Assembly: GCA_021812735.1 (NCBI GenBank)
Contig: JAKAMV010000325.1
Coordinates: 1 to 9,431 of the forward strand
Reading direction: 5' to 3'
DNA: 9,431 nt
Source of the DNA: Chloroflexota bacterium
GTDB lineage: Bacteria > Chloroflexota > Limnocylindria > Limnocylindrales > CSP1-4
A program made the translations under genes and the position numbers. The notes beneath the pieces were generated by a model, which saw only the letters and a program-made list of their open reading frames with translations, did not search any database and was not told the DNA's origin. Shown here in pieces: positions 4,041 through 7,595 of the stretch (the first letter of the stretch is position 1; every line of letters starts with the position of its first letter).

Positions 4041-4637
4041 ATGCACGAACACCACCACGCTTCGCACCACGAGCCCCGCGACATCGCGGACGCGTACGCC
4101 GAGGCGATCGCCGAGTTCCGCCGCCGCAAGGACCAAGCCTTTGCGGCCGGCCCTCAGAGTCCCCTGCTCCCCGCGGACCGGCCGCGCTTCCGTGGGTTGA
4201 CCTACTTCCCGCCGGACCTACGCTACCGCTTCGAGGGCCTCCCGCTGGGCCCATATACCGGCCACGAACCCCTCGACTTCGTCATGCAGACCTCCGATGG
4301 TCAGCCACGGCCGGCCCATCGCGTGGGGACGTTCCGGCTCGAGCTCGACGGGCGGCCACTCGAGCTGCACGCGTACGGTTTCGAGGGCTCCGACCCCGAC
4401 AGCCTCTTCGTGCCGTTCATGGACGCCACGAGCGGCCACGAGACCTACGAGGCGGGGCGCTACCTGGATCTCGAGCCGGAGGACGACGGCAGCTACGTCC
4501 TCGATTTCAACCTTGCCTACCATCCGCTCTGCGTCTATTCGCCCTACTATTCGTGTCCACTGCCACCGGCGGAGAATCGGCTGCCCGTGCGCATCGAGGC
4601 CGGCGAGATGCTCCCCGAGGGGATCGGCGGCCACTAG
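4041..4637 (+). CDS. DUF1684 family protein with His-rich N-terminus
   Basis: A 198-residue soluble protein with no signal peptide or membrane segment. The DUF1684 pattern is clear: FRRRKDQAF then SPLLPADRPRFRGLTYFPPD (about 28-60), TSDGQ, FRLELDGRPLELHAY, the core LFVPFMDATSGHETYEAGRYLDLEP (about 127-151), and VLDFNLAYHPLCVYSPYYSC followed by PLPPAENRLPVRIEAGE near the C-terminus. The biochemical role of DUF1684 proteins is not established to my knowledge; the conserved acidic, His and Cys residues in the last third would suit metal binding or catalysis (inference). Unusually, the N-terminus MHEHHHASHHE has six His in its first eleven residues, which looks like a metal-binding tail. The gene starts 33 bases after mutY and may be co-transcribed with it. 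Family assignment is confident, function unknown. Confidence 0.9.
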   Translation: MHEHHHASHHEPRDIADAYAEAIAEFRRRKDQAFAAGPQSPLLPADRPRFRGLTYFPPDLRYRFEGLPLGPYTGHEPLDFVMQTSDGQPRPAHRVGTFRLELDGRPLELHAYGFEGSDPDSLFVPFMDATSGHETYEAGRYLDLEPEDDGSYVLDFNLAYHPLCVYSPYYSCPLPPAENRLPVRIEAGEMLPEGIGGH

Positions 4638-4666: not shown

Positions 4667-4695
4667 TTGCGCCTCGCCCGTGCGTGTGGCAACCT
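4667..4695 (+). promoter_or_regulatory. Weak candidate promoter of the sulfurtransferase leader
   Basis: TTGCGC (4667-4672) and CAACCT (4690-4695) are separated by 17 bases. The expected start, about seven bases after the -10, falls around 4702, just before the leader ATG at 4706. Match to consensus is poor (TTG of the -35; A2 and T6 of the -10). It is listed because its position fits the leader peptide and attenuator downstream. Confidence 0.25.
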
Positions 4696-4705
4696 TCGCG
4701 TCCTG

Positions 4706-4768
4706 ATGCGCCACGCCAGCATGTGTCCGTGTCGATCTGCGGCCCTCCGTCCACCGGACGGGGCCTGA
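4706..4768 (+). CDS. Candidate Cys-Pro-Cys leader peptide upstream of sulfurtransferase
   Basis: A 20-codon frame with a second in-frame ATG at 4721. The shorter form reads MCPCRSAALRPPDGA and both end at TGA 4766-4768. The two Cys codons (4724-4726 and 4730-4732) are both TGT, whereas TGC outnumbers TGT roughly 12 to 4 among the Cys codons I counted in the window's genes. The frame lies between the DUF1684 stop and an intrinsic terminator, and its last codons form the first hairpin of the leader RNA (4741-4765). Cysteine-containing leader peptides that attenuate sulfur genes, including sulfurtransferase operons, are known in mycobacteria; this one has only two Cys and no Shine-Dalgarno. That it is translated is inference from position and content. 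Confidence 0.4.
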   Translation: MRHASMCPCRSAALRPPDGA

Positions 4769-4831
4769 GGCGGCGCGCCCACATCGCGCCGCGTGGCAGG
4801 CGCAGAGGCCGCAGTCGGCAACGACTGCGGC
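4733..4831 (+). promoter_or_regulatory. Attenuator or riboswitch-like leader: antiterminator and terminator
   Basis: CGATCTGCGGCC at 4733-4744 can pair with GGCCGCAGTCG at 4807-4817: eight continuous pairs (4737-4744 with 4807-4814), a one-base bulge (T4736), then three more. The same 4808-4817 segment is the left arm of the terminator hairpin, so the two helices exclude each other. The long-range helix would enclose two local hairpins: 4745-4763 (eight pairs including one G-U, loop ACC) and 4770-4792 (GCGGCGCG with CGCGCCGC, loop CCCACAT). The result is a multi-branched junction closed by a switching helix. Pairing was worked out by hand. Whether the switch responds to ribosome position on the Cys codons or to a ligand is unknown. 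I do not recognise a published riboswitch consensus in it. Confidence 0.5.
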
Positions 4832-4843
4832 TTTCGTGTTTCT
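4808..4843 (+). terminator. Intrinsic terminator within the sulfurtransferase leader
   Basis: Perfect 10-bp arms GCCGCAGTCG (4808-4817) and CGACTGCGGC (4822-4831) flank a GCAA tetraloop and are followed by TTTCGTGTTTCT, an unusually T-rich stretch for this DNA. It lies 170 bases after the DUF1684 stop and 90-125 bases before the sulfurtransferase start, so it either ends the upstream transcript or acts as the regulated terminator of the leader. The distance and the competing helix favour the second. Confidence 0.8.
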
Positions 4844-4846
4844 ACA

Positions 4847-4918
4847 GGGCTGAGCTGCCCGCCGCGGCGCCCGCGGCGGGTCCGGCAGCCCCAGTCCAGC
4901 TGCGGGCGAACTGCCCGC
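4847..4918 (+). repeat. Second structured block ahead of the ribosome binding site
   Basis: GGGCTG (4847-4852) pairs with CAGCCC (4886-4891) and encloses a perfect 10-bp hairpin, CCCGCCGCGG (4858-4867) with CCGCGGCGGG (4871-4880), loop CGC. A further hairpin GCGGGC (4902-4907) with GCCCGC (4913-4918), loop GAACT, ends four bases before the AGGAGG at 4922. GCCCGC at 4857-4862 can pair alternatively with GCGGGC at 4902-4907, so rearrangement is possible. It may influence access to the ribosome binding site. High GC makes some pairing expected by chance, but the perfect 10-bp stem is notable. Confidence 0.45.
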
Positions 4919-4933
4919 CACAGGAGGAGCAAG

Positions 4934-5779
4934 GTGAGCGTCCCCACCGCATCCGCCACCCAGGCGCTCGTGTCGCCCGAGTGGGCCAGAGAACACCTGA
5001 ACGACCCTCGCGTCCGCTTCGTGGAGGTGGACGTCGACACGACCGCCTACGAGCAGTCGCACATCCCCGGTGCTGTCGCCTGGAATTGGACCACGCAACT
5101 CGCCGACAACATCCGCCGTGACCTAGCCTCGCGCGAGGACCTCTCGCGGCTCCTCAGCCACTCGGGCATCGGGTCAGAAACCCACGTCGTCCTGTACGGC
5201 GACAACAACGACTGGTTCGCCGCCTGGGCGTACTGGCAGCTCAAGCTCTTCGGCTGGGAGCGCGTGAGCCTGCTCGACGGCGGCCGCCGCTACTGGCTGG
5301 ACAACGGCTATCCGATCACGACCGATCTGCCGCACTACCCGGAGACGGGCATCCAATTGCCGGAACCGTCCTACGCGCTCCGAGCGTTCCGCGACGACAT
5401 CCTGCCCCGCCTCGGCCGCGACGAGCTGGCGCTGGTCGATGTGCGGTCGCCCGCAGAATACAACGGCGAGGTGATCGCCCCGCCCGGGATGTCAGAGACG
5501 GCCCAGCGCGCCGGCCACATCCCAGGCGCCGTGTCGGTGCCGTGGTCGCAAGCAGTGCGCGACGACGGGCGCTTCAAGAGCCAGGCGGAGCTCCACGAGC
5601 TGTACGCCTCGAAGGGCGTCACGGCCGACCGCGACGTCATCGCGTACTGCCGCATCGGCGAGCGGTCGAGCCATACGTGGTTCGTGCTCCACGAGCTGCT
5701 CGGCTACCCGAACGTCCGCAACTACGACGGGTCTTGGACCGAGTGGGGTTCGATGGTGGGTGTCCCGATCGAAAGATGA
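4934..5779 (+). CDS. Thiosulfate sulfurtransferase (two-domain rhodanese, CysA2/SseA type)
   Basis: Transfers sulfane sulfur from thiosulfate, through a cysteine persulfide, to cyanide or thiol acceptors; cytosolic. The 281-residue protein has two rhodanese repeats: an inactive N-terminal one (about 8-130: LVSPEWAREHL, FVEVDVDTTAYEQSHIPGA, VVLYGDNNDWFAAWAYW, LLDGGRRYW) and the catalytic C-terminal one (about 160-275: LVDVRSPAEYNGE, HIPGAVSVPWSQA, then Cys239 in AYCRIGERSSHTWF, ending NYDGSWTEWGS). The CRIGERS loop and overall sequence closely match mycobacterial CysA2/CysA3. GTG at 4934 is chosen because AGGAGG (4922-4927) sits six bases upstream and the protein then starts just before the first domain; the longer frame from 4793 would begin inside the leader hairpins. 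The gene follows a structured leader with a terminator and converges on the TauE/DUF1634 operon, suggesting sulfur-linked regulation (inference). Confidence 0.95.
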   Translation: MSVPTASATQALVSPEWAREHLNDPRVRFVEVDVDTTAYEQSHIPGAVAWNWTTQLADNIRRDLASREDLSRLLSHSGIGSETHVVLYGDNNDWFAAWAYWQLKLFGWERVSLLDGGRRYWLDNGYPITTDLPHYPETGIQLPEPSYALRAFRDDILPRLGRDELALVDVRSPAEYNGEVIAPPGMSETAQRAGHIPGAVSVPWSQAVRDDGRFKSQAELHELYASKGVTADRDVIAYCRIGERSSHTWFVLHELLGYPNVRNYDGSWTEWGSMVGVPIER

Positions 5780-5810: not shown

Positions 5811-6248
5811 CTAGCGGATCAGGAAAATGCTCCCGAGCAGGATCGCCAGCACGACCAACGTGATCACCACGTAGAGGCGATCCTCCTCGAGGGCGAAACC
5901 GACCACCGATGCCGCCACACGCACCACCGGCGTCGCCAGCAGCAGCGCGAGCCCCAACTGCGTGATCGCGGAGGGCCGCAGCGCCACGAGCCCGGCCGGC
6001 ATCGCCGAGAAGTCGGCGAGATTGGCCGGGCCGGGCGCCCCGCCCGCGAGCGAGGTACGCCAGCCGAACGCGAGCGCCAGCACGAATCCCAGCGCGATGA
6101 CGGCGGCGCTGACGCTGACGCCGCCGGCCAACACATAGCTCACCATGACCCTGAAGCGCTCCGGTGACAGGTGGGACACGTGTCCCGGCTGCGGCTCGCC
6201 CGGGCCGCGCATCACCCTCTTCCCATCGGCCGTCCGGTTCGTCATCAT
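5811..6248 (-). CDS. DUF1634 membrane protein, partner of TauE/SafE permease
   Basis: A 145-residue membrane protein. After a polar, Arg-rich N-terminus come three hydrophobic segments: about 35-62 (VSYVLAGGVSVSAAVIALGF onwards), 93-118 (ITQLGLALLLATPVVRVAAS onwards) and 123-144 (YVVITLVVLAILLGSIFLI). The block LRPSAITQLGLALLLATPVVRVA followed by EEDRLYV is the DUF1634 hallmark. In many genomes DUF1634 genes sit next to TauE/SafE permease genes, as here, 14 bases after the TauE stop; a role as permease subunit is inferred from this linkage. The start is ATG 6248 or the adjacent ATG 6245, preceded by GCGGGG; later in-frame starts cannot be excluded. The stop is 31 bases from the stop of the convergent sulfurtransferase gene. 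No T-rich terminator is visible between them. Confidence 0.9.
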   Translation of the reverse strand: MMTNRTADGKRVMRGPGEPQPGHVSHLSPERFRVMVSYVLAGGVSVSAAVIALGFVLALAFGWRTSLAGGAPGPANLADFSAMPAGLVALRPSAITQLGLALLLATPVVRVAASVVGFALEEDRLYVVITLVVLAILLGSIFLIR

Positions 6249-6262
6249 CCCCGCTCGCCGAC

Positions 6263-7105
6263 TCAGATCCCGAGGCCGAAGCCGCGGGCCACCATCTCGG
6301 CCGCGATCACCACGAGGACCGGGAGGAAGACGCGGCGCACGCCGGCATTCGACATGTGCACGAGAAGTCTGGCCCCGATCAGCGCACCGACCAGCACCCC
6401 CAGCGCGACCGGGGCAGCGACGCTCGCGTCGACGTCGCCCCGCCCGATATAGATGCCCGCCGACGCCGCCGCGGTGACCCCGATCATGAAGTTGCTGGTG
6501 GTCGAGGAGACCTTCATCGGCAGCCGCATGGCGCCGTCCATCGCCATCACCTTGAGCGCCCCGGACCCGATGCCGAGCATCCCCGAGACCAGGCCGGCGA
6601 ACCCCATCATCACGAAGCCGAGCGGGATCCGGCGCGCCTCGTATCCCACTTCGCGACCCAACCGGGAGTCCGGATAGCTCGATGCGAGCCCCAGGCGCGC
6701 CGCGAGTCCGGTCGGCTCGATGTGCGGCGGGAGCTCCTCGCGCAGCCGCCAGAGCTGCTGCACGGCGGAGAGGAAGAGGACGACGCCAAGGAGGAAATAG
6801 AGGAACCGCACCGACACGATCGCCGCGAGGAGCGCGCCGATGACGGCCCCCGTGGTCGTGGCCAACTCGAGGAACATCCCGATGCGCAGGTTCGTCAGGC
6901 GGTCGCGCACGTAGGCGGCGGCGGCCCCCGAGCTCGTCGCGATCACCGAGACGACGCTCGCACCGACGGCATGCCGGATGTCCACGCCGAAGATCACTGT
7001 GAGCGCGGGGATGATCAAGATGCCACCACCCACACCCCCGAGCGCGCCGATGATGCCCGCGGCGATGCTCACCAGGAAGATGCCGAGGTCGGCGGAGATC
7101 GTCAC
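6263..7105 (-). CDS. Sulfite exporter TauE/SafE family permease
   Basis: A roughly 280-residue polytopic membrane protein, probably eight helices. TauE/SafE proteins move anions such as sulfite or organosulfonates across the inner membrane; the substrate here is not defined by sequence. Two homologous halves are visible: the first with GALGGVGGGILIIPAL near residues 18-33 and DIRHAVGASVVSVIATS, the second with SGMLGIGSGALKVMAMDGAM and LPMKVSSTTSNFMIGVTAAA. The second half is typical of the subfamily found with DUF1634. A polar loop (about 125-165) joins the halves. GTG 7105 is chosen because it lies seven bases after the thioesterase stop, suggesting coupled translation; a TTG at 7159 would add 18 residues inside the thioesterase frame. 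No clear Shine-Dalgarno is present. It is the middle gene of the thioesterase-TauE-DUF1634 operon. Confidence 0.93.
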   Translation of the reverse strand: MTISADLGIFLVSIAAGIIGALGGVGGGILIIPALTVIFGVDIRHAVGASVVSVIATSSGAAAAYVRDRLTNLRIGMFLELATTTGAVIGALLAAIVSVRFLYFLLGVVLFLSAVQQLWRLREELPPHIEPTGLAARLGLASSYPDSRLGREVGYEARRIPLGFVMMGFAGLVSGMLGIGSGALKVMAMDGAMRLPMKVSSTTSNFMIGVTAAASAGIYIGRGDVDASVAAPVALGVLVGALIGARLLVHMSNAGVRRVFLPVLVVIAAEMVARGFGLGI

Positions 7106-7112
7106 CGGTTGC

Positions 7113-7595
7113 TCATGCCCAGCGATGGTACGCCGGATGTCCGGGCCGGACCGCCACAAACGTGCCGCGGAAGGTGACGCAGCGCAGACCGCCGGCCTCC
7201 AGCGAGGATTCCACGGTCGCCCGGTCGGGCTGCAGGTCGACGACCCGCGCGCGCAGGGTCACGGGACCATCAGTGGGGCTGGGGCGCAGAAAGGTGAGCG
7301 CGAAGGAGGCCGTCACGGTCGCCGGAACGGCGTCGCTCCCGGCAGCGCGCATCAGGGCGATCACGGCGGCCCAGTTGCTGTGACAGTCGAGCAGCGTGCC
7401 GATGATCCCGCCGTTGAGCGCCCCCGGGAACGCCTCGTAGCGTGGCTCGGGACGCCACTTCGCGACGACCTCATCCCCCTCTTCGAAGCTGCGCAGGTGC
7501 AGACCAGCGGGGTTCGCGGGGCCACAGCCGAAGCAGACACTGCGGGGCGCCAGCCGCTCCTGGAGGCTGCGAGCCTCGGCGCGCAGATCGGTCAC
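7113..7595 (-). CDS. PaaI-type hotdog-fold thioesterase
   Basis: A 160-residue protein of the PaaI-like hotdog family, which hydrolyses acyl-CoA thioesters in the cytosol; substrate unknown. Visible motifs: an N-terminal CFGCG (Cys21, Cys24) followed by NPAGLHL, as in members with a Cys pair; the active-site helix region FPGALNGGIIGTLLDCHSNW (about 56-75) with Asp70; strands VTASFALTFLRPSP and VTLRARVVDLQPDRATVESSL; and a C-terminal GTFVAVRP. Many PaaI proteins have HGG before the central helix; here it is NGG, which appears to be a subfamily variant and not damage. GTG 7595 is chosen over far-upstream alternatives because of the TACACT box eight bases before it. It is first gene of the minus-strand operon with TauE and DUF1634. 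A thioesterase in a sulfite-export operon is not an obvious pairing, so the functional link is unknown. Confidence 0.87.
   Translation of the reverse strand: MTDLRAEARSLQERLAPRSVCFGCGPANPAGLHLRSFEEGDEVVAKWRPEPRYEAFPGALNGGIIGTLLDCHSNWAAVIALMRAAGSDAVPATVTASFALTFLRPSPTDGPVTLRARVVDLQPDRATVESSLEAGGLRCVTFRGTFVAVRPGHPAYHRWA

What the first reader, a model, noticed from the sequence alone, without database searches (positions are those of the whole stretch)
4706..4933. Candidate cysteine-sensing leader peptide upstream of a sulfurtransferase gene
A 20-codon frame with a Cys-Pro-Cys motif, both Cys as TGT, sits directly before an attenuator-like RNA and a CysA2-type thiosulfate sulfurtransferase. Cysteine leader peptides controlling sulfur genes are established in mycobacteria, some as polycysteine leaderless ORFs. 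A two-Cys version with a classical terminator/antiterminator in this genetic setting would be a variant I do not recognise. The direction of response is not clear: a ribosome stalled on the second Cys codon would cover 4733-4743 and might favour the terminator.
Basis: partly seen in the sequence, partly recalled or inferred. Interest (0 to 1): 0.78.

Follow-up and report, generated by a model that had tools for sequence, protein, structure and literature searches.

The report
Cysteine leader peptide before sulfurtransferase gene
Just before a sulfur-handling enzyme gene, an uncultured bacterium carries a tiny gene whose cysteine codons probably let the ribosome report the cell's cysteine supply to the RNA polymerase; relatives and distant phyla carry similar devices at the same gene.

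Summary
A closed 20-codon frame (4706-4768, MRHASMCPCRSAALRPPDGA*) with two TGT Cys codons lies before a terminator (4805-4834) and a CysA2-type sulfurtransferase (4934-5779); the organism is Candidatus Limnocylindria (Chloroflexota). In the family 21 of 34 orthologues carry a short frame with Cys at the same place (17 C-x-C, 4 single Cys). An automatic C-x-C test finds 16 of 33, shuffles 0.66. Polycysteine frames precede the orthologue in 20 of 21 Balneolales copies (terminator found by script behind 14), heading sulfite-reductase and PAPS-reductase genes where checked, and in 5 of 28 copies of one Anaerolineae order. Most likely it is a cysteine-responsive ribosome-mediated attenuator: a known kind (mycobacteria; cysS of Rhodobacterales), which I did not find in print for this gene in these phyla. 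In the window the antiterminator starts directly after the second Cys codon, so a stalled ribosome would mask it. That predicts the opposite of classical attenuation, but L082 does not fully reproduce it and no expression data exist.

The parts
4706..4768 (+). leader peptide frame MRHASMCPCRSAALRPPDGA*, Cys codons TGT 4724-4726 and TGT 4730-4732
   Evidence: 89% identical to L082 over 63 aligned bases without gaps, against 72% for the upstream gene
4667..4696 (+). weak promoter-like block TTGCGC - 17/18 nt - CAACCT/AACCTT, 9-10 nt before the leader ATG; no Shine-Dalgarno before the ATG, so a (nearly) leaderless start is possible
   Evidence: 5 of 12 consensus matches only; L082 has TTGCGC and AACGTT at the same spacing; best SD match 2 of 6 (leader) against 6 of 6 (gene). 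Inference, not shown
4733..4744 (+). antiterminator strand X (CGATCTGCGGCC), near-copy of the terminator 3' arm CGACTGCGGC; starts directly after the second Cys codon
4741..4765 (+). hairpin P1 (GGCCC-T-CCGTCC / ACC / GGACGG-GGCC) overlapping X and the end of the leader
   Evidence: minimum-energy structure; sequence kept in L082 but for one loop base
4805..4844 (+). intrinsic terminator: stem 4805-4834, tail CGTGTTTCTA
   Evidence: inner stem GGCCGCAGTCG/CGACTGCGGC identical in L082
4922..4927 (+). Shine-Dalgarno AGGAGG of the sulfurtransferase gene
4934..5779 (+). CysA2/CysA3-type thiosulfate sulfurtransferase (two rhodanese domains), GTG start
   Evidence: Pfam PF00581 E 4.3e-35, 2 stretches; best PDB matches 3hwi (thiosulfate sulfurtransferase) and 3aax (putative thiosulfate sulfurtransferase), E about 4e-97
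4041..4637 (+). upstream DUF1684 gene (context only)

Best explanation
The frame is a translated cysteine leader peptide and, with P1 and the terminator, forms a ribosome-mediated transcription attenuator of the sulfurtransferase gene. How fast the ribosome passes the two TGT codons depends on charged tRNA-Cys and decides whether X (4733-4744) is free to pair with the 5' arm of the terminator (4807-4817). Shown by sequence: the frame, the Cys codons, the terminator, the X:terminator complementarity and their conservation in L082. Inferred: translation, cysteine as the signal, and the switch itself. Direction (separate, about 0.4): a ribosome stalled at the second Cys codon covers X, so starvation should favour termination, and ready passage to the stop codon should free X and allow read-through, the reverse of a classical attenuator.
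For: The leader is the most conserved of the eight stretches compared with L082. Cys-bearing frame at the same place in 21 of 34 family orthologues, 16 of 33 by an automatic C-x-C test against 0.66 in shuffles. In 16 of the 19 family leaders outside the window clade an in-frame start lies within 8 nt of the stop of an upstream frame over 60 codons, as in coupled translation (no shuffle control made). First Cys slot is TGC in 14 and TGT in 3 of 21 leaders. Polycysteine frames before the orthologue in 20 of 21 Balneolales copies and 5 of 28 copies of one Anaerolineae order. In the Balneolales loci checked the gene is followed by sulfite reductase and PAPS reductase genes. X matches the terminator 3' arm in window and L082. 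Ribosome-mask scan of the window: pairing of the terminator 5' arm with upstream sequence 0.99-1.00 with the ribosome at codons 0-4 and 1.00 at the stop, 0.38 and 0.58 at the Cys codons.
Against: No expression or footprint data. 13 of 34 family orthologues show no leader (one, L113, a gene fragment; one, L090, with only 132 nt of upstream sequence). Among the family loci seen, only the window's species and L082 have the terminator, and the family model R1 does not detect their leaders, so common descent with the other family leaders is not shown. L082 does not reproduce the recovery of pairing at the stop codon (0.58-0.60 at the second and third Cys and 0.60 at the stop). In the complete RNA the terminator wins in every ribosome state tried (at least 0.96), so the switch would have to be kinetic. 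Leader substitutions against L082 show no third-position bias. Only two Cys codons. No consistent effect on Shine-Dalgarno access in the family (means 0.32 free, 0.37 stalled, 0.36 at stop), so how leaders without terminators act is open. In L082 access changes strongly (0.18 free, 0.80 stalled), which would fit translation attenuation there; the window species does not change (0.20-0.21).
Confidence: 0.72

Rival explanations
1. The conserved stretch is an untranslated RNA or DNA element (protein or metabolite binding, structural), and the Cys frame is a by-product.
For: Strong base-level conservation: the second Cys slot is TGT in 20 of 21 leaders (L081 left out, L118 included) although TGT is 14 of 101 Cys codons in family genes. 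A hairpin arm follows that slot at a fixed distance, with A-U replacing G-C at its fifth pair in 5 of the 21 rows that have a partner, of 22 examined. No third-position bias between window and L082.
Against: Start codons lie at the upstream stop in 16 of 19 leaders; the first Cys slot (TGC/TGT) and the following Pro codon vary silently; unrelated RNA sequences in Balneolales and Anaerolineae share only the Cys-rich frame and a terminator; no Rfam match in the window and one chance-level match in 16 relatives.
Confidence: 0.15
2. The terminator simply ends the upstream DUF1684 transcript and the leader frame is fortuitous.
For: An intergenic terminator is commonplace; the leader has only two Cys codons; the terminator wins at equilibrium.
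Against: The leader is better conserved than the DUF1684 gene (89% against 72%) and carries a near-copy of the terminator 3' arm. In L083, 78% identical in the sulfurtransferase, the two genes upstream match no Pfam family, so DUF1684 is not there, while a Cys leader is.
Confidence: 0.08
3. Classical direction: cysteine starvation frees the antiterminator and turns the gene on, through stalling at the first Cys codon or a fold not captured here.
For: Balneolales spacing is classical: X lies 8-17 nt after the last clustered Cys codon in the 11 of 20 leaders where the script resolved X. With the 31-nt mask the window keeps 0.89 pairing when the ribosome sits at the first Cys codon.
Against: X begins 0 nt after the second and 6 nt after the first Cys codon in the window; pairing falls at both with the 26-nt mask.
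Confidence: 0.35
4. The nascent CPC peptide itself binds a metal or reacts with a thiol oxidant and stalls the ribosome (compare copper-responsive leader peptides, recalled).
For: A spaced C-x-C followed by Pro/Arg is conserved in the family rather than a Cys run; four family leaders keep a single Cys there.
Against: In other phyla the peptides share only many Cys residues, not the motif, and in the Balneolales loci checked they head assimilatory sulfur genes.
Confidence: 0.1

Closest known systems
Polycysteine leaderless short ORFs of mycobacteria (Canestrari 2020, Mol Microbiol; paper not held; seen only as cited in PMC13236596, otherwise recalled)
   Same: short Cys-rich frame before sulfur genes, cysteine as signal, ribosome pausing as sensor; the window gene is closest in the PDB to 3hwi and 3aax, which I recall as mycobacterial CysA2 and CysA3
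   Different: those act on ribosome-binding-site access (translation attenuation); here a terminator/antiterminator pair in another phylum, with two spaced Cys codons
uORFC-8-2 motif before cysS in Rhodobacterales (PMC8632094, passages read)
   Same: leader frame with two Cys codons, hairpins and an intrinsic terminator
   Different: different gene, phylum, sequence and fold; two Cys codons in tandem; its authors presume the classical direction
Candidate cys leader peptides of Actinobacteria (PMC1262725, passages read)
   Same: Cys codons near the end of a short frame upstream of cys operons
   Different: no terminator found there
trp/his/ilv-type ribosome-mediated attenuators (recalled)
   Same: leader peptide plus mutually exclusive antiterminator and terminator
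   Different: in the window the antiterminator strand lies directly after the regulatory codons, inside the footprint of a stalled ribosome

Membership tests
ribosome-mediated transcription attenuator | short translated frame with regulatory codons upstream of the gene | tested here: met
   frame present and conserved; translation itself not shown
ribosome-mediated transcription attenuator | intrinsic terminator between leader and gene | tested here: met
ribosome-mediated transcription attenuator | alternative pairing between leader and terminator 5' arm | tested here: met
   8 nt in window (50 of 2000 letter shuffles as long), 9 nt in L082 (14 of 2000)
ribosome-mediated transcription attenuator | ribosome stalled at the regulatory codons leaves the antiterminator free (classical logic) | tested here: not met
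   window: pairing with X falls at the Cys codons; with a 31-nt mask the first Cys codon alone leaves it at 0.89
ribosome-mediated transcription attenuator | expression responds to the amino acid | not testable with these tools
   no expression data
mycobacterial polycysteine leaderless sORF attenuators | run of Cys codons | tested here: not met
   two spaced Cys codons in the window
mycobacterial polycysteine leaderless sORF attenuators | leaderless start | tested here: inconclusive
   no Shine-Dalgarno, weak promoter-like block 9-10 nt upstream
mycobacterial polycysteine leaderless sORF attenuators | leader structure sequesters the downstream ribosome-binding site | tested here: not met
   window species: SD unpaired 0.20 free, 0.21 stalled, 0.20 at stop; no consistent change in the 22 leaders folded (20 of them in the mean); L082 does change (0.18 to 0.80)
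uORFC-8-2 (cysS, Rhodobacterales) | located upstream of cysS | tested here: not met
   gene is a sulfurtransferase

The most novel reading that the evidence does not exclude
In the window clade the cysteine attenuator runs backwards. Because the antiterminator strand starts at the second Cys codon, cysteine starvation parks the ribosome on it and terminates, while ample cysteine lets the ribosome clear it and switches on a sulfurtransferase that would then act in cysteine-derived sulfur disposal. In Balneolales a similar device, whose antiterminator lies just beyond the stalled ribosome, would switch on sulfur assimilation when cysteine is scarce. A shift of about 15 nt would thus have inverted the logic.
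Probability: 0.33. Interest if true: 0.78.

Novelty: new variant of a known kind. Interest (0 to 1): 0.6.

Why it matters
It would extend cysteine-sensing leader peptides from Actinobacteria and Rhodobacterales to Chloroflexota, Balneolota and perhaps Acidobacteriota, and show that the same sulfurtransferase is repeatedly put under ribosome control. The contrast in spacing between window clade and Balneolales gives a testable case of how the sign of an attenuator can be set by the distance between regulatory codon and antiterminator.

Tried and rejected
Rfam search of the window (no match) and of 16 fetched loci, L081 of the window's species among them (one chance-level hit, E 0.62). Leader against Pfam and NCBIfam: nothing. 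MAFFT alignments of the family leaders misplace the hairpin and RNAalifold on A3 gave little covariation (6 pairs, 1 with changes on both sides), so the arm pairing was counted by script. Shine-Dalgarno sequestration in family leaders: no consistent effect, L082 excepted. Covariance model R1 (7 sequences) over 107 family genomes: 22 hits at E <= 0.01 in 19 genomes. By their coordinates 13 lie upstream of the sulfurtransferase (7 of these in the genomes the model was built from), 1 at a contig end before an unseen gene (G107), 8 elsewhere (E 6.7e-5 to 0.01; neighbourhoods only glanced at). G001 has no hit and G078 (L082) only one elsewhere, so R1 does not see the window-clade leader. No wider regulon was recognised. 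Leaders before cysteine synthase or PAPS reductase in the family: 1 of 56 loci has a closed frame of at most 45 codons with C-x-C or CC within 450 nt before the domain match. Limits of that control: 30 of the cysKM matches only, from genomes nearly all without the sulfurtransferase; a few loci with little upstream sequence, L239 almost none; and part of the 450 nt is coding in the PAPS-reductase set. The Anaerolineae leaders (L061; L140, L142, L144) and L063 gave no clean switch in the mask scans. In Balneolales the script found no terminator for 6 of 20 leaders and no usable X for 3 more; L119-L121 show low antiterminator pairing in the free and Cys-stalled states. The looser test (C-x-C or CC) barely separates the Anaerolineae order from shuffles (6 of 27 against mean 4.28, maximum 10) and is weak in Balneolales (20 of 21 against 9.56, maximum 15). 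Structure prediction and fold search were not used.

Full report
WHAT IS THERE. The frame 4706-4768 reads M R H A S M C P C R S A A L R P P D G A stop, with Cys codons TGT at 4724-4726 and 4730-4732. A terminator-like hairpin lies at 4805-4834 with tail CGTGTTTCTA. The gene at 4934-5779 is a two-rhodanese sulfurtransferase; its best PDB matches are 3hwi (thiosulfate sulfurtransferase) and 3aax (putative thiosulfate sulfurtransferase), E about 4e-97, which I recall as mycobacterial CysA2 and CysA3. Some protein hits named Candidatus Limnocylindrales and a 99% identical MAG locus of a Chloroflexi bacterium, L001, place the window in Chloroflexota, most likely class Candidatus Limnocylindria (lineage). 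No whole genome is held for the window.

CLOSE RELATIVE. The family search (107 genomes held, 34 with an orthologue at E <= 1e-100) gave one clearly diverged close relative, L082, 83-84% identical in the sulfurtransferase. Its leader is MHNACMCPCRYAALRPLDGA*. Aligned to the window the leader is 89% identical without gaps; the DUF1684 gene upstream 72%, the stretch between that gene and the leader 68%, 4769-4804 64%, the terminator region 74% (its inner stem unchanged), 4847-4915 56%, the ribosome-binding stretch 83% and the start of the gene 85%. Seven leader substitutions fall 2/3/2 over codon positions. By my count five change the amino acid (one adds a third Cys) and two are silent (Cys TGT to TGC, Arg CGA to CGG). 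Both window Cys codons and the stop are kept. Conservation is strong, but this pair alone cannot tell peptide from RNA.

WIDER FAMILY. Of the 34 family orthologues (one, L081, being the window's own species), 21 have a short frame with Cys at one place before the gene: 17 with C-x-C and 4 with one Cys at the second slot (for L104 the frame was corrected by eye). In 13 I recognised none; one of these is a gene fragment (L113) and one has only 132 nt of upstream sequence (L090). Typical peptides outside the window clade read (G)RCACPRRAR. Automatic test: a closed frame of at most 60 codons with C-x-C within 260 nt upstream occurs in 16 of 33 loci (L090 dropped for length; window in place of L081), in 0 of 33 on the reverse strand, and in a mean of 0.66 (maximum 3) over 100 dinucleotide shuffles. 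Real-sequence control: 1 of 56 cysKM or PAPS-reductase loci of the same family has a closed short frame with C-x-C or CC (limits under Tried and rejected). In 16 of the 19 leaders outside the window clade a start codon lies within 8 nt of the stop of an upstream frame longer than 60 codons (no shuffle control), as expected of coupled translation. The second Cys slot is TGT in 20 of 21 leaders (L081 left out, L118 from outside the family included), while TGT is 14 of 101 Cys codons in family genes; this may reflect selection for a slow codon or an RNA constraint. A hairpin arm starts 8 nt after the T of that codon. Its fifth base pairs as G-C in 16 and A-U in 5 of the 21 rows with a partner, of 22 examined; L086 has none, and L081, L082 and L118, counted among the 16, are in another register. 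A chance partner for the A variants occurs in 14-20% of letter shuffles each, for the G variants in 15-84%. A covariance model of seven of these leaders finds other family leaders but neither that of G001 (window species) nor that of L082: the window-clade leader is thus alike in place and Cys codons, not shown to be the same RNA element.

OTHER PHYLA. Scanning upstream of the first 80 loci showed polycysteine frames in Balneolota, Anaerolineae and one Acidobacteriaceae MAG. In the order of Rhodohalobacter (Balneolales) 20 of 128 genomes have the gene at E <= 1e-110, in 21 copies; 20 of the 21 have a polycysteine frame, for example MRMDMCMCCCMNPLKGSGADMSK*. The exception, L139, is a second copy in G199. 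The script found a terminator behind 14 of the 20. In the Anaerolineae order 27 of 154 genomes have the gene at E <= 1e-120, in 28 copies; 5 of 28 (L140-L144) have MVNL...MCC.C-type leaders, with a terminator in the three put through the script (for L140 the frame was read). Control for two Cys pairs in one closed frame: Balneolales 16 of 21 against 0 on the reverse strand and 0.67 in shuffles, Anaerolineae 5 of 27 against 0 and 0.12; with looser patterns these AT-richer sets separate poorly from shuffles. In the Rhodohalobacter locus L036 the gene is followed on the same strand by assimilatory sulfite reductase, uroporphyrinogen-III methyltransferase, PAPS reductase and a sirohaem gene. A sulfite-reductase neighbour was checked and found in L045, L048, L051, L052 and L059, and PAPS reductase in the four of these in which it was checked. 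This fits cysteine feedback on cysteine supply.

MECHANISM. The terminator 5' arm can pair with its own 3' arm or with leader strand X. In the window X is CGATCTGCGGCC (4733-4744), a near-copy of the 3' arm CGACTGCGGC; longest exact complementarity 8 nt (50 of 2000 letter shuffles as long), 9 nt in L082 (14 of 2000). Masking a 26-nt ribosome on the truncated transcript gives pairing of the 5' arm with upstream sequence of 0.93 free, 0.99-1.00 with the A site at codons 0-4, 0.38 and 0.58 at the two Cys codons (at the second the partner is bases before the ATG, not X), and 1.00 at the stop. A second setting gives the same order: 0.89 free, 0.70 and 0.65 at the two leader Cys codons, 0.96 at stop; with a 31-nt mask 0.89 and 0.64 at the Cys codons and 0.93 at stop. 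L082 gives 0.80 at its first Cys codon, 0.58-0.60 at the second and third, and stays at 0.60 at the stop, so it does not reproduce the recovery. With the complete terminator in the RNA the terminator dominates in all states tried, so any switch is kinetic. In Balneolales X (AGGTAGTGG-like) lies 8-17 nt after the last clustered Cys codon in the 11 of 20 leaders where the script resolved it. In L045, L048 and L059 a ribosome at the clustered Cys codons leaves the pairing at 0.81-0.98, and moving on lowers it (lowest values seen 0.06, 0.33 and 0.05; part of the L048 output was cut); but at the stop codon it returns (0.75 in L045, 0.81 in L059), so with this mask the Cys-replete state is not clearly different. 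With the 31-nt mask pairing at the stop is 0.36-0.48 in L123, L124, L130, L131, L134, L137 and L138. L119-L121 and L052 do not show the classical pattern. Hence the spacing favours classical logic in Balneolales and reversed logic in the window; both remain predictions, the latter with low confidence.

START OF THE LEADER. No good Shine-Dalgarno precedes the first leader ATG listed for window, L082, L140, L142, L144 or L063 (best 2 of 6), while the window and L082 genes have AGGAGG (in the other phyla my gene starts also scored 3 of 6 or less, so the contrast holds only for the window clade). A promoter-like pair (8 of 12 matches) lies 9 nt before the ATG in L140, L142 and L144 and 7 nt before it in L063; the window and L082 have only a weak one (5 of 12) at the same place. 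A leaderless start, as in mycobacteria, is possible but not shown.

WHAT IS KNOWN. Cys leader peptides without terminators were predicted in Actinobacteria (PMC1262725, passages read). A two-Cys leader with terminator was predicted before cysS in Rhodobacterales (PMC8632094, passages read). PMC13236596 (passages read) cites Canestrari 2020 for translation attenuation of cysteine biosynthetic genes in M. smegmatis; that paper is not held. Eight searches of the open-access library (listings seen) showed no report of such leaders in Chloroflexota or Balneolota; most subscription papers are missing from that library.

VERDICT. The direction of response in the window is unresolved and is the most interesting open point.

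Noticed in passing
L036:4992-10187; also L045, L048, L051, L052, L059: In Balneolota the polycysteine attenuator heads an apparent operon: in L036 sulfurtransferase, assimilatory sulfite reductase, uroporphyrinogen-III methyltransferase, PAPS reductase and a sirohaem gene; sulfite reductase checked in all six loci, PAPS reductase in all but L052.
   Followed up: partly
PMC8079986, Table 4 (Streptomyces lividans metL; passages read): The published leader MSTTSDRTPATEATTTPGARCMCRRMCAF before metNIQ, read there as a methionine leader, holds RCMCRR, close to the RCxC(P/R)xR motif of the Limnocylindria leaders; it may be a cysteine leader.
   Followed up: no
L139 upstream region: A second sulfurtransferase copy in genome G199 keeps a terminator-like repeat and a GATAGTGG block but no polycysteine frame, perhaps a decayed attenuator (seen by eye).
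   Followed up: no
window 5811-7159, minus strand: Convergent to the sulfurtransferase lie a DUF1634 gene and a TauE/SafE-type (sulfite exporter family) gene, so the neighbourhood looks sulfur-related.
   Followed up: partly
window 4853-4890: Very GC-rich strong hairpin (seen by eye and in the fold) between terminator and ribosome-binding site; the stretch is poorly conserved in L082.
   Followed up: partly
L175 (G107:C286:151-204): Strong match to the leader-hairpin model (E 8.1e-8) at a contig end; the gene behind it is off the contig.
   Followed up: no
L177 (G032:C234:10180-10230): Match to the leader-hairpin model (E 6.7e-5) in a genome without a listed sulfurtransferase; long open frames overlap it on both strands, so it may be chance, but it was not resolved.
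   Followed up: no
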